DNA of 8,649 nucleotides, from the NCBI GenBank assembly GCA_934364795.1, contig CAKRMK010000057.1, positions 1-8,649 on the forward strand, in the 5' to 3' direction. Of the stretch, positions 82-8,511 are shown piece by piece. The notes under the pieces are model-generated. The model searched no databases. It saw only the letters and a list, made by a program, of their open reading frames with translations, and was not told the origin of the DNA. The DNA is from an uncultured Blautia sp. (GTDB lineage Bacteria > Bacillota > Clostridia > Lachnospirales > Lachnospiraceae). Made by a program: the position numbers and the translations under genes. The stretch's first letter is position 1. Every line of letters starts with the position of its first letter.

Positions 82-2373
82 ATGGAAAGAGATAATATTC
101 GGAAGCTGATTTCTCAGATGACACTGGAAGAAAAAGCAGGAATGTGTTCCGGCTCTGATTTCTGGCATTTGAAAGGAATTGAGAGACTGGGAATTCCAGC
201 GGTGATGGTTACAGATGGCCCACACGGTCTGAGAAAACAGGCAAATGCTTCAGATCATCTGGGAATTAATGAGAGTGAAAAAGCAATCTGTTTCCCGGCA
301 GGATGTGCGACAGCATCCAGTTTTGATCGCAATTTGATCCGCAGACAGGGTGAGCTGATCGGACAGGAATGTCAGGCAATGGATGTAAGTACAATTCTTG
401 GCCCTGCAATGAATATTAAGCGTTCGCCTTTGTGCGGAAGAAACTTTGAATATTATTCTGAAGATCCATATGTATCTGCAGAGATGGCTGCTGCAATGGT
501 AGAAGGAGTTCAGAGTAAAAATGTAGGAACAAGCGTAAAGCATTTTGCAGTGAATAATCAGGAAAAACGAAGAATGACGTCCTCTTCGAATGTAGATGAG
601 AGAACACTTCGTGAGATTTATCTGGCATCTTTTGAAGGCGCAGTAAAAAAAGCAAAACCATGGACTGTTATGAGTTCCTATAACCGTGTCAATGGAGAAT
701 ACATTGGAGACAGCAAAGAGTATCTGACGGACATTCTGAGAAATGAATGGGGATTTGATGGATATGTTGTGTCAGATTGGGGAGCAGTCAATGACAGAGT
801 GAAAGCACTGTCAGCAGGTCTCGATCTGGAAATGCCGCCAGGAGACTACGAGAATGACAGACTGATCATAAAAGCTGTACAGGATGGAAAACTGGATGAA
901 AGCATTGTTGATCAGACTTGTGAACGAATCTTGGAGGTTATCTTCCGTTATGCAGAAAACCGTGATCCAAAAGCTGTATTTGATTATGAAAAGGATCACA
1001 GTGCAGCAGCTGAAATTGAAGCAGAATGTATGGTTTTGTTGAAAAATGAAAACAATATTCTTCCGTTGAAATCAGAGCAAAAGATTGCATTCATTGGAAA
1101 GTACGCAAAAACGCCAAGATATCAGGGAGGTGGAAGTTCTCATATCAACAGCTGGAAAGTAGAATCTGCATTGGATGTAGCGAAAGACATTCCGGAACTT
1201 GCAGATGTGACTTTCGCAGAGGGATATCAGGATGAGAAAGATGTAGTTATTGAAGACCTCCAGAATAAGGCAGTAAAAACAGCTGCTGAAGCAGATGTAG
1301 CCGTTCTGTTTCTTGGGCTTCCGGATAATTTTGAATCTGAAGGATATGACAGAAAACATATGAATCTTCCGGACTGCCAGAATGAACTCGTAAAGAAAAT
1401 TCTGGAAGTACAGAAACATGTGGTCGTTGTCCTCCATAACGGATCTGCTGTATTGATGCCATGGAAAGACCAGGTAGAAGGTATTCTGGAAGCTTATCTT
1501 GGAGGAGAAGCAGTAGGAAAGGCAACAGCAGAAGTGCTTGCAGGAAAAAAGAATCCATGCGGACGTCTGGCTGAAACATTTCCGCTTCGGCTGGAAGATA
1601 CACCTTGCTATCTGACTTATGGAAAAGGCTTTGATAATGCGGACTATCAGGAAGGTGTATTTGTAGGATATCGTTACTATACATCCAGAAAAATAAGAAC
1701 TGCATTTCCATTTGGTTATGGCTTATCTTATACAACATTTGAATATAGTGATCTTCAAATGGATAAGAAAGAAATGTCTGATCAGGAAAACGTGGAGGTA
1801 AGTCTTAAGGTCAAAAATACTGGAAACCGATCAGGAAAGACCGTTTTACAGCTTTATGTAGAAGCTCCTGAAACAGAAGTCGTTCGCCCGGTCAGAGAGC
1901 TGAAGGGATTTGAAAAGATTTTCCTGGAAGCAGGAGAAGAAAAAACAGTTACATTTACTTTGAATGAGAGGGCATTCGCTTACTGGAATACACAGATCCA
2001 TGACTGGTATGCTGAGGAAGGCTGTTACAGGGTAATGATTGGTGAAAATGCAGAACAAATGTGTCTGAGTAAAGAGATTACTGTTCATTGTACGAAAGAA
2101 ATTCCGAAAGTATATTCACTGAATTCCTGTATGGGCGAGCTGATGCGTGATCCAAAAGCACAGGCTGTGATGGCACCGTTTATGCAGGGCATGACACAGA
2201 ATGAAGCGGCTGCGGATATGGCAGAAGCTCAGGAAAATGATGACTCAGGAGTGATCAATCAGGAAATGATGGCTGCAATGATGGAAGCGATGCCGCTTCG
2301 TCAGCTTTTAAGTTTCATTCCGGGAATTACAAGAGAAATGTTAGAACAGATGGTAAATTCTTTAAACGCTTAA
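82..2373 (+). CDS. Glycoside hydrolase family 3 beta-glycosidase with Met-rich C-terminal tail
   Basis: Predicted cytosolic retaining beta-glycosidase (beta-glucosidase type) of 763 residues that releases terminal beta-linked sugars. The GH3 barrel covers roughly residues 10-290: VTDGPHGLR (43-51) and KH (153-154) are substrate-site motifs, and VVSDWGA carries the presumed nucleophile D232. The GH3 C-terminal sandwich (about 325-550) holds ESEGYDR, in which E420 is the likely acid/base by family analogy. A fibronectin-III-like domain follows (about 590-665, with VRPVRELKGFEK at 601-612). Residues 678-763 form an extra Met-rich, helix-like tail that is not part of the usual GH3 architecture and resembles the end of the GH78 protein downstream. 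GAGGAGGT at 68-75, 6 nt before the ATG, supports this start. There is no signal peptide. The gene is first in the visible operon, 13 nt before the transporter. The exact sugar specificity cannot be read from the sequence. Confidence 0.95.
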   Translation: MERDNIRKLISQMTLEEKAGMCSGSDFWHLKGIERLGIPAVMVTDGPHGLRKQANASDHLGINESEKAICFPAGCATASSFDRNLIRRQGELIGQECQAMDVSTILGPAMNIKRSPLCGRNFEYYSEDPYVSAEMAAAMVEGVQSKNVGTSVKHFAVNNQEKRRMTSSSNVDERTLREIYLASFEGAVKKAKPWTVMSSYNRVNGEYIGDSKEYLTDILRNEWGFDGYVVSDWGAVNDRVKALSAGLDLEMPPGDYENDRLIIKAVQDGKLDESIVDQTCERILEVIFRYAENRDPKAVFDYEKDHSAAAEIEAECMVLLKNENNILPLKSEQKIAFIGKYAKTPRYQGGGSSHINSWKVESALDVAKDIPELADVTFAEGYQDEKDVVIEDLQNKAVKTAAEADVAVLFLGLPDNFESEGYDRKHMNLPDCQNELVKKILEVQKHVVVVLHNGSAVLMPWKDQVEGILEAYLGGEAVGKATAEVLAGKKNPCGRLAETFPLRLEDTPCYLTYGKGFDNADYQEGVFVGYRYYTSRKIRTAFPFGYGLSYTTFEYSDLQMDKKEMSDQENVEVSLKVKNTGNRSGKTVLQLYVEAPETEVVRPVRELKGFEKIFLEAGEEKTVTFTLNERAFAYWNTQIHDWYAEEGCYRVMIGENAEQMCLSKEITVHCTKEIPKVYSLNSCMGELMRDPKAQAVMAPFMQGMTQNEAAADMAEAQENDDSGVINQEMMAAMMEAMPLRQLLSFIPGITREMLEQMVNSLNA
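2113..2370 (+). other. Met-rich C-terminal tail of the GH3 protein (residues 678-763)
   Basis: This segment follows the fibronectin-III-like domain. It begins YSLNSCMGELM, continues through a P-x-A-x-x-x-M pattern to QGM, and has an acidic/Met linker. It ends in an amphipathic stretch (PLRQLLSFIPG, then EMLEQMVNSLN). It contains 13 Met in 86 residues. The start and end blocks match the GH78 tail in order and spacing. I do not recognise a named domain here. Confidence 0.6.
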
Positions 2374-2386
2374 AGGGAGAGAAAAA

Positions 2387-3058
2387 ATGGGAAAAACAAA
2401 AAAAGAACTTGGTCTGGATTCCATGGGAGTCCAGAAATCGATGAGACTGACAGATTATCTGGGCGATGGACTTGGTCAGCTTCCACTTAATGTTATGAGT
2501 GGTCTGGTAGGACAGCTTACATATTTTTACACAGAAAAAGTTGGGCTTGCTGCTGGAATGGTTGCTACTATGCTTCTGATCGCAAAGATTTTTGATGCAT
2601 TTTCAGATCTTGCGATGGGAAAAATTATGGATGCTGGAAAGTCACCGAAAGGAAAATGTCGTCCGTGGTTCCTGAGAATGGCCGTACCGACATTTATCAT
2701 GATCATAGTACTGTTTACAGTTCCCAAAAACGCAAACAGTGGACTTCAGGCAGCATATGTGCTTATTACCAATATCCTGCTTACAGCAATTGTATATACA
2801 GCAATTGCCATTCCATATAATGCGCTGATGGCAATGCGGACAGAAAGTTCTGATGAACGTGGTAAAATGGGAATCTTCCGGGCCGCTTTTGGATATATTG
2901 CAGGAATGATCATTGGAAATGCAAATACATCCATGGCAGACTATGTCTGGCTTCCACTGAAACTGGATGGAGAATATCCAGTAATTGAATGGGCAGAGAA
3001 ATGGGATATCAGAAAATATTCAAATAGTTGCTGTAATAATAGCATAAAATTTTTTTAA
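2387..3058 (+). pseudogene. Truncated GPH/MFS_2-family sugar:cation symporter (N-terminal half only)
   Basis: The first ~176 residues read as a glycoside-pentoside-hexuronide symporter: a cytosolic N-terminus, hydrophobic segments around 30-48, 55-75, 98-112, 118-143 and 163-177, and the family-typical stretches AKIFDAFSDLAMGKIMD and GKCRPWF. A functional member has about 12 membrane segments in 450-500 residues. This one stops at 223 after roughly five. From residue ~178 the sequence becomes polar and aromatic (ADYVWLPLKLDG, PVIEWAEKWD), unlike a membrane segment, and the last ~15 residues are low-complexity and Asn/Cys-rich. This looks like a deletion that fused the 5' half of the transporter to other sequence. 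AGGGAGA at 2374-2380 is the ribosome site. The position between GH3 and GH78 shows that the intact gene was the importer of this locus. It is unlikely to transport as it stands. Confidence 0.75.
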
Positions 3059-3078
3059 ATTGAATTGGAGAAAACAAA

Positions 3079-5817
3079 ATGAAATTATATGATTTAAGAA
3101 CGGAATACAGAGTAAATCCTGTTGGACTTGCGAACAGGAAGCCCAGGTTTTCCTGGAAAATGTATTCAGCAGAAAAGAATACCATGCAGACTTCTTACAA
3201 AATTAATGTAATAGATGAAAATGGCAATCAGGTATGGAACAGCGGAAAAAGACTTTCTCAGAATTCTGTGCTGATTTCTTATGATGGCGAAAAACTGGAA
3301 TCAGAAACATATTATACAGTGCTGGTTTCTGTAACAGATAATCATGGAAATACAGCGGAAATCGAAGGGACTTTTGAAACTGGAATTTTTGACAATACCC
3401 AATTTTCTGCACAGATGATCACCGGCAGTTTTCCGACAGAAGAAACGGCCTGCCCGGTATTTGGAAAGAGATTTTCGGTGAAGAAAAAAGTAAAAAAAGC
3501 TCGTCTGTATGCAACTGCTCACGGTGTTTATGAAGTAACTCTGAATGGTCAGACTGTTGGAGATTATCGTATGGCCCCGGGATGGACAAGCTATCACAAC
3601 AGACTTCAGTACCAGATTTATGATGTAACCGAAAAATTGACTGCAGAGAATGAGATGGAAATCACAGTTGGAAATGGCTGGTACAAGGGAATTCTTGGCT
3701 TTACCTGTGAACCAAACTGTTATGGAACACAGGCAGGTGCATTTGCGGAACTTCATGTTTTTTATGAGGACGGAAGCAAAGAAGTAATCGCAACAGATGA
3801 AGGCTGGTCTGTGAGGACTGGTGAGATCCGGTACAGCGAAATCTATATGGGTGAGACAATTGATACAGATGAGTCGGAAATTGCAGAGGGAAAGACTGTT
3901 AAAAAGCAGTTTGATAAAACTGTTTTGACGGCACAGGAAAACGAACCGGTTCGCATCACGGAAAGGATTTCCGGAAAAGCACTAATTACTACTCCAAAAG
4001 GGGAAAAGCTTGTAGATTTTGGGCAGATCCTTACAGGTGTTGTGGAACTTCATGTAAAAGGTAAAAAAGGACAGAAAATTGTGATTCGTCATGCCGAAGT
4101 GCTGTATAAAGATGGTAATTTTTATCCTGAAACACTCAGACAGGCAAAATCAATCGATACATTTATATGCAATGGAGAAGAGCAGATTTTCCGTCCACAT
4201 TTTACATTCCACGGATTCCGTTATATCTGCGTAGAAGGACTGGATGAATTTACGGAGGATCAGTTTACGGCATGTGTGATACATTCCGATATGGAAAAAA
4301 CAGGGGATTTCAGCTGCTCAAACAGGAAAGTAGATCAGCTTCAGAAAAACATCACCTGGAGTCAGAGAGATAATTTTCTGGATATTCCCACAGATTGCCC
4401 ACAGCGTGATGAACGCCTTGGCTGGATGGGAGATGCACAGGTATTTTCCTGGACAGCAGCCTTTAACAGAAATACAGCATTGTTTTACACAAAATGGATG
4501 AGGGACATTGCAGCGGAATCTTCTCTGGAAAAAGGAGTTCCTCATGTTGTTCCGGACATTCTGGAGCAGTATAGTTCTTCCGCATGGAGCGATGCAGCAG
4601 TGATCATTCCATGGGTTGTATATCAAATTTACGGAGACAAAGATATCCTGGAAGAAAACTGGAGATGTATGCATGAATGGGTCGATTATATCAGGAACAA
4701 CTGTGGTGAAAATGGTCTCTGGCAGACAGGGTTCCAGTATGGAGACTGGCTTGCATTGGACAAAGAAGAAAGTGCTGACAGAACAGGTGCTACAGACAAA
4801 TATATGATTGCAAATGCTTATTATCTGTATGTAACAGATCTTGTGAAAAAGACAGCGGAAGTGCTTGGAAAAACAGAAGAAGCTTCTATTTATGCAAACT
4901 TGTATACAGTAACACTCAAAGCATTTCAGGAAGAGTATTATACAGCAACAGGCCGCATTGTAAGTGAAACTCAAACGGGTGCGATTCTTTCGCTTTACTT
5001 TAATCTTGCAAGAGAAAAGGACAGAGAACGTATCTTAAACACATTGCTTACAAATATTTCGAATCACAAGAATCATCTTGCAACAGGTTTTGTTGGAACA
5101 CCATATATCTGCCATGTACTTTCTGAAAATGGAGCACATGAGATGGCAGCAGCACTTTTTATGAAAGAAGATTATCCATCCTGGCTGTATGCGGTCAATA
5201 TGGGCGCAACAACAATCTGGGAACGTTGGAATTCCATCAGACCAGATGGAACTTTTGACGAATCAGGAATGAATTCCCTGAATCATTATGCTTATGGTTC
5301 TGTGGGAGACTGGATGTATCGTAAAATTGCCGGGCTATCCCAGCTGGAACCGGGATATAAGAAATTTCAGATAAAGCCAATGTTTGTGAAAGGAATTGAA
5401 GAATGGGGCGTGAAATTTGAATCTGTTTACGGAAAAATTGTGGCTGAAACATCCTGCAAAAACGGAAAGATTCATATGCACGTAGAAGTACCGGCAAGTA
5501 CCACTGCCGTGATTATTCTGCCGGAGAAAAATGAGACACTGGAAGTCGGTTCGGGAGTTTATGATTATGAATATGAAACAGAAACAAGCCTTGTTGTAGA
5601 ACGATTCAGTATGGACAGTACCCTTGCTGAAATTATTGCAGAACCACTTGCTGTTGAGATGTTTAATCAGATGGCACCTGGAATGCTGGAAGGACCGATG
5701 ATACAGTTTGCATATGGAATGACACTTTCAGAAATGCTCGGTGCTGCACCAGAAGCAAAACCTATGTATGAAGCAGTTATAAATGCACTTAATCAGAAAG
5801 AAAAAGAAGAGATGTAA
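3079..5817 (+). CDS. Glycoside hydrolase family 78 alpha-L-rhamnosidase with Met-rich C-terminal tail
   Basis: Inverting alpha-L-rhamnosidase of 912 residues, predicted cytosolic (no signal peptide), releasing terminal L-rhamnose. Domain order is an Fn3-like N-terminal domain (about 1-95), the rhamnosidase N-terminal sandwich (about 125-290, with ATAHGVYEVTLNG and APGWTSYHNRLQYQ), a concanavalin-like domain (about 300-400), an (alpha/alpha)6 catalytic barrel (about 408-750) and a C-terminal sandwich (about 750-835). Catalytic-site motifs are intact: DCPQRDERLGWMGD (D439, D444, E445, D452; E445 is the likely general acid by family analogy), IWERW with E715 as the likely base, and NHYAYG (735-740). 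Residues 843-912 are an added Met-rich tail like that of the GH3 protein. TTGGAG at 3065-3070, 8 nt before the ATG, supports the start. The stop is only 3 nt from the SGNH gene, so translational coupling is likely. Flavonoid, saponin or polysaccharide rhamnosides are all possible substrates. Confidence 0.95.
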   Translation: MKLYDLRTEYRVNPVGLANRKPRFSWKMYSAEKNTMQTSYKINVIDENGNQVWNSGKRLSQNSVLISYDGEKLESETYYTVLVSVTDNHGNTAEIEGTFETGIFDNTQFSAQMITGSFPTEETACPVFGKRFSVKKKVKKARLYATAHGVYEVTLNGQTVGDYRMAPGWTSYHNRLQYQIYDVTEKLTAENEMEITVGNGWYKGILGFTCEPNCYGTQAGAFAELHVFYEDGSKEVIATDEGWSVRTGEIRYSEIYMGETIDTDESEIAEGKTVKKQFDKTVLTAQENEPVRITERISGKALITTPKGEKLVDFGQILTGVVELHVKGKKGQKIVIRHAEVLYKDGNFYPETLRQAKSIDTFICNGEEQIFRPHFTFHGFRYICVEGLDEFTEDQFTACVIHSDMEKTGDFSCSNRKVDQLQKNITWSQRDNFLDIPTDCPQRDERLGWMGDAQVFSWTAAFNRNTALFYTKWMRDIAAESSLEKGVPHVVPDILEQYSSSAWSDAAVIIPWVVYQIYGDKDILEENWRCMHEWVDYIRNNCGENGLWQTGFQYGDWLALDKEESADRTGATDKYMIANAYYLYVTDLVKKTAEVLGKTEEASIYANLYTVTLKAFQEEYYTATGRIVSETQTGAILSLYFNLAREKDRERILNTLLTNISNHKNHLATGFVGTPYICHVLSENGAHEMAAALFMKEDYPSWLYAVNMGATTIWERWNSIRPDGTFDESGMNSLNHYAYGSVGDWMYRKIAGLSQLEPGYKKFQIKPMFVKGIEEWGVKFESVYGKIVAETSCKNGKIHMHVEVPASTTAVIILPEKNETLEVGSGVYDYEYETETSLVVERFSMDSTLAEIIAEPLAVEMFNQMAPGMLEGPMIQFAYGMTLSEMLGAAPEAKPMYEAVINALNQKEKEEM
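5605..5814 (+). other. Met-rich C-terminal tail of the GH78 protein (residues 843-912)
   Basis: This segment lies beyond the GH78 C-terminal sandwich. It opens FSMDSTLAEII, reaches a P-x-A pattern and APGM, and closes with GMTLSEMLG and YEAVINALN, followed by a charged KEKEEM end. There are 9 Met in 70 residues. Block order and spacing parallel the end of the GH3 protein (YSLNS..GEL, QGM, PLRQLLS, MVNSLN). Confidence 0.6.
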
Positions 5818-5820
5818 AAT

Positions 5821-6540
5821 ATGAGAAGTTTTAAGGGACTCTTTTCTAAACTGTATGATATAAAATTGAAACGACTTCCTGGAAATGCGAAGAAATATGC
5901 ACTTAGTCAGGTAGAAGAACAAGAGATAGAAGAACTAAATGGGAAAAAGATCATTTTTCTGGGTTCTTCTGTCACATATGGAGCTTCTTCCAAAGGGGTT
6001 TCTTTTGTGGATTATATAGGAAAAAGAAATCATATCAAAATAATAAAAGAAGCAGTTTCTGGAACTACATTAGTAGATGAGAGTGCAGATTCTTATATAA
6101 GCAGAATGAAAAAAATCAAGGAAGATGATGCAGATATATTTATCTGCCAGCTGTCAACAAATGATGCAACACAGAAAAAAGAGATGGGAACAGTCGGCGA
6201 ATCAAAAAATATGTGTTCGTTTGATACAAAGACAGTAGCTGGTGCAATAGAGTACATTATATGCTACGCAAAACATACATGGGATTGTCCGATTATGTTT
6301 TATACAAATCCGAAGTATGATAGTGACAATTACAAGAAAATGGTTCGGCTATTACAGAAGATTCAGAAAAAATGGGATATTGCGATAATTGATCTTTGGA
6401 ATGATGATGATTTTAATGTGCTGACAAGAGAAGAACGTTTCCTTTATATGGCAGATCCTATCCATCCGACACAGGCAGGATACCTGAAATGGTGGATACC
6501 ATATATAGAGGGAAAAATAGTGGAATATTTGGCTGAATAA
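5821..6540 (+). CDS. SGNH/GDSL-type hydrolase, probable cytosolic carbohydrate esterase
   Basis: A 239-residue SGNH-fold hydrolase. All four hallmark blocks are visible: block I IFLGSSVTYG with nucleophile S50 (GSS in place of GDS), block II AVSGTT with G81, block III STND with N114, and block V ADPIHPTQAGY with D212 and H215. The likely role is removal of acyl (often acetyl) groups from a glycoside so that the two glycosidases can act. That role is inferred from context; the fold alone does not fix the substrate. There is no signal peptide or lipobox. The 40-residue N-terminal leader (MRSFKGLFSKLYDIK...) is basic and precedes the fold. The ATG lies 3 nt after the GH78 stop, with a weak AAGAAGAG-like ribosome site inside the GH78 end, which suggests coupled translation. 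Codon and base composition is more AT-rich than in the upstream genes. A terminator follows directly. Confidence 0.88.
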   Translation: MRSFKGLFSKLYDIKLKRLPGNAKKYALSQVEEQEIEELNGKKIIFLGSSVTYGASSKGVSFVDYIGKRNHIKIIKEAVSGTTLVDESADSYISRMKKIKEDDADIFICQLSTNDATQKKEMGTVGESKNMCSFDTKTVAGAIEYIICYAKHTWDCPIMFYTNPKYDSDNYKKMVRLLQKIQKKWDIAIIDLWNDDDFNVLTREERFLYMADPIHPTQAGYLKWWIPYIEGKIVEYLAE

Positions 6541-7246: not shown

Positions 7247-7263
7247 TTAGCAGATTACGCCTA

Positions 7264-7361
7264 TACCCATTTCACAATATATAGTGTCATCTCATACCAT
7301 CTTGTACATGATATTGCGTGTCATTTGATACCATTTAGTACTAGATAACACTCAATAACAC
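7264..7361 (+). repeat. Degenerate 10-bp tandem repeat array, block 1
   Basis: Successive decamers in register run from about 7264 to 7361. The clearest are TGTCATCTCA (7285), TACCATCTTG (7295), TGTCATTTGA (7319), TACCATTTAG (7329) and TACTAGATAA (7339), with one 4-nt slip at 7315-7318. The consensus is about TRYCATTTRG. About nine copies are visible, diverged but in phase. A single reverse-strand copy (TCACATTTGG, then TGTTCC) is readable within 7381-7400. Confidence 0.65.
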
Positions 7362-7428
7362 ACGGAACCAACAATTTTTTGGAACACCAAATGTGACAGT
7401 TTCAAGGTTGATTTTTGTCCCCTTCATT

Positions 7429-7527
7429 GATCTTTTGGTACTACTTAGTGATATTTGGTGTCATATAATTATCTTCTTTTCCTACGCTGCTATCTAATGC
7501 CATTTAGTTCCGTTTGGTATTATTTCA
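7429..7527 (+). repeat. Degenerate 10-bp tandem repeat array, block 2
   Basis: Two further runs of the same decamer occur. 7429-7468 includes TACTACTTAG (7439), TGATATTTGG (7449) and TGTCATATAA (7459). 7488-7527 includes TGCTATCTAA, TGCCATTTAG (7498), TTCCGTTTGG (7508) and TATTATTTCA (7518). They are separated by 19 nt, about two units less one base. The orientation and consensus match block 1. The array ends about 140 nt before the nuclease start, upstream of its likely promoter. Confidence 0.65.
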
Positions 7528-7575
7528 CAGATCAAATTTCAAACATCCCCCTTCAAACCACCACTAAAAATCATC

Positions 7576-7604: not shown

Positions 7605-7650
7605 AAAATCACATAAAAAGTCTAGTATTGTTCTAAGTATGAGAACGAAT

Positions 7651-7658
7651 GGAGGTGA
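7651..7658 (+). promoter_or_regulatory. Ribosome binding site that fixes the nuclease start
   Basis: GGAGGTGA is a near-perfect anti-16S match, 7 nt before the ATG at 7666. The longer in-frame ATG at 7639 has no Shine-Dalgarno before it, and its first codons would overlap this site, so 7666 is the supported start. Confidence 0.85.
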
Positions 7659-7665
7659 CTACACC

Positions 7666-8511
7666 ATGGCAACTGAAACTAGCATACAGGACAGTGAATT
7701 AGAAGCACGATACGATAAATACAAAGGCATTATCAAAAATTTTACCCTTATGAGTGATATTTTCATGAGAAACGTATTCAAGCAAAGAGAATGCTTAGAA
7801 TATGTTCTGCGGGTTATTATGGAAAAACAGGATCTGCGTGTAATTGATCAGATAATTCAGAAGGACTACAAAAATATGCAGGGCCGGTCAGCAGTAATGG
7901 ACTGCGTTGCCAGAGACTCTGAAGGCAAACAGTTTGATGTAGAAATCCAGCAGGATAATGAAGGCGCATCTCCAAAACGAGCTCGCTATCATAGCGGCCT
8001 GATGGATATGAACACCTTAAATCCTGGTCAGGACTTCGATGAGTTGCCGGAAAGCTATGTAATTTTTATTACCAGAGATGATATCCTTGGATATGGACTT
8101 CCTATTTACCATATTGACAGACAGATCAAGGAGATTAACAAAGCATTCCAAGATGAAGCACATATTATATATGTAAATTCCAGGAAACAGGACGATACAG
8201 AACTTGGACGGCTTATGCATGATCTGCATTGTAAAAGAGCAGATGAAATGCACAGTCCGGTTCTTGCAAAAAGGGTACATGAATTGAAAGAGACACAGAA
8301 AGGGGTTGAGCTTATGTGCCATGAAATGGAGAAAATTTATAGCGAGGGAATGGAAAGCGGCGAGAAGCGCGGTGAACTCAAAAAAGCAAAAGAAACAGCT
8401 CTTTCTCTTGCAGAAATGGGATTACCTGTTGAAAAAATCGCAAAAGCTGTAAACCATAATGTGAAAGATGTCCAGAAATGGATTAATGAAACTTTGTGTG
8501 TAACAAAATAA
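7666..8511 (+). CDS. Rpn-family / PDDEXK_2 nuclease (recombination-promoting nuclease, putative transposase)
   Basis: A 281-residue protein from the Shine-Dalgarno-supported start. The N-terminal part (about 25-55, FMRNVFKQRECLEYVLRVI) is the usual lead-in of PD-(D/E)XK 'transposase' proteins. The catalytic core is GRSAVMDCVA (D79) followed by FDVEIQ (E93, Q95), the D...ExQ variant of the nuclease motif; the metal-binding residues are present. RARYHSGLMD and YVIFITRDD follow as core helix and strand. Residues about 225-250 are charged and probably coiled-coil. The end (ALSLAEMGLPVEKIAKAVNHNVKDVQKWI) is the helical, HTH-like tail common in this family. Family members promote RecA-independent DNA exchange in E. 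coli (RpnA), but the role of Firmicute relatives is poorly known. The gene appears intact and monocistronic: it has its own possible promoter and a strong terminator 15 nt after the stop. It sits beside a decamer repeat array. Confidence 0.88.
   Translation: MATETSIQDSELEARYDKYKGIIKNFTLMSDIFMRNVFKQRECLEYVLRVIMEKQDLRVIDQIIQKDYKNMQGRSAVMDCVARDSEGKQFDVEIQQDNEGASPKRARYHSGLMDMNTLNPGQDFDELPESYVIFITRDDILGYGLPIYHIDRQIKEINKAFQDEAHIIYVNSRKQDDTELGRLMHDLHCKRADEMHSPVLAKRVHELKETQKGVELMCHEMEKIYSEGMESGEKRGELKKAKETALSLAEMGLPVEKIAKAVNHNVKDVQKWINETLCVTK

What the first reader, a model, noticed from the sequence alone, without database searches (positions are those of the whole stretch)
2113..5817. Two unrelated glycosidases carry the same kind of Met-rich C-terminal tail
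Seen: GH3 residues 678-763 and GH78 residues 843-912 align in blocks in the same order: [YF]S[LM][ND]S with E[LI] shortly after, P-x-A then M and GM, then MPLRQLLS / MTLSEML, then a final MVNSLN / VINALN. The middle linker differs by about 15-20 residues. Known: neither GH3 nor GH78 architectures normally end this way, and the two catalytic folds are unrelated. Inference: the tail is a mobile module shared among co-encoded cytosolic enzymes. It could act as a docking or oligomerisation helix pair that gathers them into one complex, a membrane or transporter-proximal anchor, or a sorting tag. The SGNH enzyme of the same operon lacks it.
Basis: partly seen in the sequence, partly recalled or inferred. 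Interest (0 to 1): 0.7.

Follow-up and report, generated by a model that had tools for sequence, protein, structure and literature searches.

The report
Shared mobile tail on sugar enzymes
Two unrelated sugar-cutting enzymes encoded side by side in a Lachnospiraceae-like bacterium end in the same small, predicted-helical module, which also occurs on at least three further enzyme families and likely works as a flexible flap beside the active site.

Summary
Observation confirmed. The last ~70-90 residues of the GH3 and the GH78 are homologous: BLASTP alone is not significant, but family profiles score 43.6 against at most 22.7 in 200 shuffles. The tail profile matches 73 of 250 Lachnospiraceae genomes: C-terminal on GH3, GH78, GH2 and BD-FAE esterases, N-terminal on a GH43, a permuted GH3 and probably a GH13. 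It is thus a mobile module; Pfam and NCBIfam gave no domain for it. It is resolved in GH3 structures 7ms2 and 8j9f/9lql and matches the ends of gut beta-glucuronidases such as 7kgz, whose C-terminal domain was reported as unresolved, active-site-flanking in models and needed for triclosan-glucuronide cleavage (PMC8748916, PMC9377255). Fold and profile suggest a remote cysteine-free relative of DUF1858.

The parts
82..2373 (+). GH3 glycosidase (763 aa), host of the first module
   Evidence: Pfam PF00933, PF01915, PF14310; closest solved relative 7ms2 over residues 5-762
2104..2370 (+). C-terminal module of the GH3 (residues 675-763), Met-rich, predicted helical
   Evidence: profile match residues 673-763; aligned to the resolved C-terminal part of 8j9f, 9lql and 7ms2; helices H684-688, H691-705, H708-718, H727-736, H739-745, H751-762 in the full-length model, where residues 709-715 are below pLDDT 50
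2387..3058 (+). GPH-type sugar symporter, 223 aa; relatives have 462 aa, the window lacks about 0.8 kb
   Evidence: PF13347, TIGR00792 below its cut-off; 462 aa in L001 and L010
3079..5817 (+). GH78 alpha-L-rhamnosidase-family enzyme (912 aa), host of the second module
   Evidence: PF17389, PF08531, PF05592, PF25788, PF17390
5584..5814 (+). C-terminal module of the GH78 (residues 836-912)
   Evidence: profile match residues 841-908; model pLDDT 87.9, pTM 0.74, helices H14-18 H21-30 H40-43 H48-54 H56-76
5821..6540 (+). SGNH/GDSL-type hydrolase of the same cluster, without the module
   Evidence: PF13472; no module match

Best explanation
The two tails are homologous copies of one mobile module of about 70-90 residues, predicted to be helical and probably a remote cysteine-free relative of the DUF1858 fold, that is appended to unrelated, apparently cytosolic sugar-processing enzymes and likely acts as a tethered flexible flap beside the active site that tunes how bulky substrates are handled. 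Shown here: homology of the two tails, the spread over host families at either end of the protein, the lack of signal-peptide-like segments in hosts. Shown by others for one carrier family (gut GH2 beta-glucuronidases): the C-terminal domain that ends in this module is needed for cleavage of triclosan-glucuronide, was mobile in crystals, and flanks the active site in models. Inferred: that the same role holds in GH3 and GH78, and that the flap may act on the own or on a neighbouring subunit of a homo-oligomer.
For: Homology. Spread: 73 of 250 Lachnospiraceae genomes; 173 modules in held loci (after removing those over 90 % alike and partial profile matches) on GH2 63, GH3 53, GH78 41, BD-FAE 13, GH43 1, GH13 1, permuted GH3 1; N-terminal on the last three, with 4 proteins listed for the GH43 form and 14, the query included, for the GH13 form. 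Match to the end of beta-glucuronidases: 7kgz residues 647-733 of 734, E 1.2e-22; 8ges, 8get, 6mvh, 6mvf, 6mvg E 1.4e-11 to 1.4e-13. Function there: PMC8748916 (section 10 read; other passages): C-terminal domain critical for triclosan-glucuronide processing, mutants unchanged by circular dichroism, such domains 'mobile and unresolved'; PMC9377255 (section 9 read): domain flanks the active site, docked drug about 3 A from it in AlphaFold models. Flexibility in a GH3 too: chains of 5wab show 654-701 residues of a 751-residue protein and align only to model residue 690, while 7ms2, 8j9f and 9lql align to the end. No partner needed: 40 of 73 genomes with one detected copy. Under selection: GH78 body 55-86 % and module 41-90 % identical to the window over 11 orthologues, GH3 body 63-87 % and module 53-83 % over 7; in all 7 GH3 pairs and in 7 of 11 GH78 pairs the module is the less conserved part.
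Against: A flap must fit at least five different host folds (folds recalled) and both termini, which would suit a general interaction module better. I saw no structure or mutant of a module-bearing GH78. The published data concern a ~150-residue C-terminal domain, of which the module is the last ~90 residues. Its place beside the active site rests on models and docking. One module-bearing GH3 (Paenibacillus PSTG, taken to be the PSTG1 of 8j9f/9lql) is a tetramer in solution (PMC3622683, passages), which fits self-association as well.
Confidence: 0.4

Rival explanations
1. The module is a self-association device: it makes each host a homodimer or homotetramer, which stabilises the enzyme and shapes a shared active-site cleft.
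For: PSTG, a GH3 taken to be the PSTG1 of 8j9f/9lql, is a tetramer, ~310 kDa by gel filtration (PMC3622683 passages), and the PSTG1 module is resolved in crystals. Such a role works at either terminus and on any fold and needs no partner gene (40 of 73 genomes with one copy). Many of the most conserved positions are L, M or I, the rest mainly S/T, N, P, G and E.
Against: In Rh3 beta-glucuronidase a dimer is seen in the crystal although such C-terminal domains stayed unresolved (PMC8748916), so there the module is probably not the dimer interface. A GH3 without the module, 3u48, is titled dimeric.
Confidence: 0.27
2. One reading: the module is a docking handle that gathers different co-encoded enzymes into one cytosolic complex.
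For: Several clusters hold two or three module-bearing enzymes of unrelated families (L011, L217, L235, L237, L238); spread over unrelated families and both termini.
Against: 40 of 73 carrier genomes have one detected copy and 125 of 148 matches have no second one within 15 kb (contigs are fragmented and the profile misses weak copies). Neighbouring enzymes in the same clusters lack it, e.g. GH2 L237:1486-3921 and the SGNH of the window. The window's two tails are only 24-27 % identical.
Confidence: 0.13
3. The module has no common role beyond stabilising or solubilising the protein end; it spread with gene fusions and is kept because removal destabilises each host separately.
For: Most enzymes of the same families do without it (10 of 181 GH3_C and 11 of 89 GH78 domains carry it in 60 genomes); a Ruminococcus faecis GH3 (L001) has lost its second half; in GH3 the module is less conserved than the body.
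Against: Still well conserved between genera; published loss of activity in beta-glucuronidase without structural change by circular dichroism (PMC8748916).
Confidence: 0.13
4. The module tethers the enzymes to the membrane or to the GPH sugar symporter encoded between them.
For: GPH/MFS transporter genes lie next to carriers in the window, and MFS-like genes in L217, L235 and L237 (the last two recognised by eye).
Against: The aligned modules show no long hydrophobic stretch (read; no transmembrane predictor was run); transporter neighbours are expected for any cytosolic glycosidase; no direct evidence.
Confidence: 0.05

Closest known systems
C-terminal domain of gut FMN-binding beta-glucuronidases (GH2; PDB 7kgz, 6mvh and others)
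   Same: The module profile matches the last ~90 residues of these proteins (7kgz E 1.2e-22); same place at the C-terminus.
   Different: Host is GH2; there the domain is described as ~150 residues and unresolved (PMC8748916). FMN is seen about 30 A from the active site in structures in which that domain is unresolved, so FMN binding is probably not a property of the module.
C-terminal segment of GH3 beta-glucosidases 7ms2 (Clostridium thermocellum) and 8j9f/9lql (PSTG1)
   Same: Same host family as the window GH3, 48-50 % identical over the alignment, which runs through the module.
   Different: I found no domain name or role for the segment in the papers I could see; 46 of 47 other listed GH3 entries align only to model residues 668-675.
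DUF1858 (PF08984; PDB 2k53, 2k5e)
   Different: No Pfam match; none of 173 modules has the C-x-x-C that 26 of 29 DUF1858 ORFs show; in most rows DUF1858 is a free-standing protein of about 65-120 aa.
NF041610 exo-alpha-(1->6)-L-arabinopyranosidase
   Same: The model spans window GH3 residues 12-760, tail included.
   Different: 806.9 bits against a cut-off of 1300, so the window GH3 is not an equivalog.

Membership tests
DUF1858 (PF08984) | Pfam match over the gathering cut-off | tested here: not met
   No DUF1858 match for the two tails or for any of 60 modules at E 0.1.
DUF1858 (PF08984) | C-x-x-C motif | tested here: not met
   0 of 173 modules; 112 of 173 have no Cys at all. Seen in 26 of 29 DUF1858 ORFs printed (two of the other three are in a wrong frame).
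DUF1858 (PF08984) | fold of 2k53 | tested here: inconclusive
DUF1858 (PF08984) | remote sequence similarity in register | tested here: met
   Score 22.9 against 300 shuffles (max 15.4), probability 62 %; second half alone 13.4 against max 11.7; 22.5 against max 15.2 of 200 with 60 modules. Lower in other settings: probability 6 % on the raw alignment, 9 % in global mode.
C-terminal domain of FMN-binding beta-glucuronidases | sequence match of the module | tested here: met
   7kgz E 1.2e-22, 6mvh 1.6e-13, 6mvf 5.6e-12, 6mvg 1.4e-11.
C-terminal domain of FMN-binding beta-glucuronidases | needed for activity on bulky substrates | not testable with these tools
   Published for Rh3 (PMC8748916 section 10).
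docking module of a multi-enzyme complex | a partner module or several carriers per genome | tested here: inconclusive
   33 of 73 genomes have two or more detected copies, 40 have one.
NF041610 equivalog (exo-alpha-L-arabinopyranosidase) | score over the curated cut-off | tested here: not met
   806.9 against 1300 bits.

The most novel reading that the evidence does not exclude
Lachnospiraceae use a cysteine-free offshoot of the DUF1858 fold as a general-purpose intracellular accessory module for imported-glycoside enzymes: one domain, at either end, on five or six unrelated catalytic folds, doing the same job (substrate gating or assembly) wherever it is plugged in, with the unresolved C-terminal domain of drug-reactivating gut beta-glucuronidases as its best-studied but unrecognised member.
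Probability: 0.4. Interest if true: 0.75.

Novelty: new variant of a known kind. Interest (0 to 1): 0.6.

Why it matters
The module has no entry in Pfam or NCBIfam, yet sits on several glycosidase and esterase families of common gut bacteria, including beta-glucuronidases that reactivate drugs and triclosan. Recognising it as one domain would make the crystal structures of two GH3 enzymes usable as templates for a beta-glucuronidase domain that was reported as unresolved, and makes its role testable by deletion and swap in easily expressed enzymes. The tie to DUF1858 would give that widespread domain of unknown function a second branch without its cysteines.

Tried and rejected
Rejected: chance similarity of Met-rich ends (0 of 3460 shuffled modules at E 1e-3). 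Thought unlikely: a redox or metal role, as no C-x-x-C and little His or Cys (0.8 % and 0.5 %). Thought unlikely: FMN binding by the module, because FMN is seen in beta-glucuronidase structures whose C-terminal domain is unresolved (PMC8748916). Led nowhere: pairwise BLASTP; the full GH78 protein search, whose 120 listed hits are all at least 85 % identical; Pfam and NCBIfam scans of modules (17 and 15 families, each matched by one of 60 members); paper searches for a described shared tail or for the structures 7ms2 and 8j9f (two searches returned no paper). The tail-only fold search gave no Foldseek E under 0.001, and its 9 matches include two with E above 7 to unrelated chains (9snf, 7tcn). 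Where the module sits relative to the active site could not be examined: no model file is laid in the script box and no tool gives PDB coordinates.

Dropped before counts: modules over 90 % alike, with fewer than 60 profile positions spanned, or E over 1e-3; identical modules; ORFs of 100 aa or more and one locus (L111) without an ORF; from the DUF1858 set L118 and L124 (wrong frame), and L122 (no C-x-x-C) too. Not all of the 148 matches were fetched as loci, so host counts describe held loci, not a random sample. Host families were assigned by BLAST to four seed bodies; Pfam was run on a part of them. The 10-of-181 and 11-of-89 counts were made by matching positions by eye; the GH3 list is cut, its total is the sum of its genome table.

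Full report
WHAT IS IN THE WINDOW. The + strand carries a GH3 glycosidase (82-2373), a shortened GPH symporter (2387-3058), a GH78 enzyme (3079-5817), an SGNH hydrolase (5821-6540) and an Rpn-type nuclease gene (7639-8511). The nearest GH78 relatives in named genomes are in Ruminococcus faecis, Blautia luti and Coprococcus comes (85-86 %); no whole genome is held for the window itself.

THE OBSERVATION. BLASTP of the two tails alone gives E 0.33, and a local alignment is matched by 12 of 2000 shuffles, a global one by none. With relatives the picture is clear: 11 GH3 tails and 14 GH78 tails (window included) give an hhalign probability of 94.8 %, and a score of 43.6 where 200 column-shuffled versions reach at most 22.7.

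HOW FAR IT SPREADS. Profile A1 (14 tails) already found GH2 and BD-FAE carriers in a search of 5 genomes. Profile A2 (30 tails) matched 21 of 60 Lachnospiraceae genomes at E 0.01, profile A5 (60 tails) 73 of 250 at E 1e-4 with 148 matches. Outside the family it is rare with this profile: 4 of 199 and 3 of 149 genomes of phylum-wide samples at E 1e-3, which share genomes with each other and include the centre genome; the Neobacillus niacini genome G005 has 4 matches. Among the held loci 173 modules remain after thinning: GH2 63, GH3 53, GH78 41, BD-FAE esterase 13, and one each on GH43, GH13 and a permuted GH3. Of 181 distinct modules before that thinning 178 are C-terminal and 3 N-terminal. 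The N-terminal cases were checked by Pfam: L217:8459-11164 is module + GH3_C + Fn3 + GH3_N, a domain order known from GlyA1 (PMC5104943, passages); L235:8820-10223 is module + GH43; L236:2961-4805 is module + alpha-amylase domain. The GH43 case is firm (four database relatives at E 1e-10 to 2e-13). The GH13 case is probable only: E 3e-5 to 3e-4 for the query and its nearest copy, 0.002 or worse for 11 of the other 12 listed relatives and no match for one. Most enzymes of these families lack the module: in 60 genomes 181 GH3_C domains and 89 GH78 domains, against 10 and 11 module carriers by position.

HISTORY. A tree of the 173 modules needs 9 host changes where 6 is the least possible and shuffled labels need 88 on average. 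GH2 modules form one group, though with support of only 47. GH78 needs 5 changes, at least 2 by well-supported branches. The permuted GH3's N-terminal module falls in a group with 19 GH78 modules (SH-aLRT 97). With 93 columns, a quick search and 86 of 170 inner branches unsupported, this says 'a few transfers', not an exact number.

FUNCTION. The most telling hit is sequence-based: the module profile matches the ends of gut beta-glucuronidases 7kgz, 6mvh, 6mvf, 6mvg and of 8ges/8get. 7kgz is Roseburia hominis 3 GUS and 6mvh R. hominis 2 GUS (PMC8748916). That paper reports that the C-terminal domain is critical for processing triclosan-glucuronide, with structure unchanged by circular dichroism (section 10), and that these domains of ~150 residues have stayed mobile and unresolved (passage). 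PMC9377255 models the domain beside the active site, about 3 A from docked mycophenolate glucuronide (section 9). Hosts look cytosolic: 1 of 128 with an N-terminus in the locus has a hydrophobic stretch near its start by a simple test, and that one looks like a too-early start codon. I therefore commit to a tethered flap near the active site as the likeliest common role, at 0.4, with self-association next: PSTG, taken to be the PSTG1 of 8j9f/9lql, is a tetramer (PMC3622683 passages). Docking of different enzymes is not excluded, but 40 of 73 genomes show a single copy and 23 of 148 matches have another within 15 kb; weak copies and broken contigs make both numbers soft.

NOVELTY. The searches made (open-licence papers only) listed no paper that, by title or the abstract start shown, ties the beta-glucuronidase C-terminal domain to GH3, GH78, GH43 or esterase tails or to DUF1858. 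The original FMN-GUS paper (J Mol Biol 2019; seen only in a reference list) was not readable, so its description of the domain is unknown to me. Names of organisms and enzymes for 6mvf, 6mvg, 8ges and 8get beyond the molecule names were not looked up.

Noticed in passing
window 2387-3058: The GPH symporter between the two glycosidases is cut to 223 aa: window 2918 to 3079 corresponds to about 0.96 kb in L001, where the protein has 462 aa, as in L010. The strain may lack its cognate transporter, or the assembly is faulty.
   Followed up: partly
L001:6131-8308 and L010:6236-8527: In Ruminococcus faecis the GH3 module is cut off about half way, and in Blautia luti MSK.16.34 the GH3 is split into two ORFs; described only.
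   Followed up: no
window 7639-8511: Rpn-type PD-(D/E)XK nuclease/putative transposase gene (TIGR01784 exactly at its cut-off, 52.1 bits; PF12784) near the sugar cluster.
   Followed up: no
window 7255-7560: Stretch between genes with many look-alike short words of the kind 'tgataccatttagtac', seen by eye and not analysed.
   Followed up: no
phylum sample: Several DUF1858 matches carry an in-frame TGA, which may be selenocysteine versions of its C-x-x-C; PMC9312934 and PMC13188914 on selenoproteins mention DUF1858 (search listing only).
   Followed up: no
L236:2961-4805: An oligo-1,6-glucosidase-like GH13 subgroup has a conserved ~70-residue N-terminal extension (14 proteins listed, query included) that matches the module profile only weakly.
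   Followed up: partly
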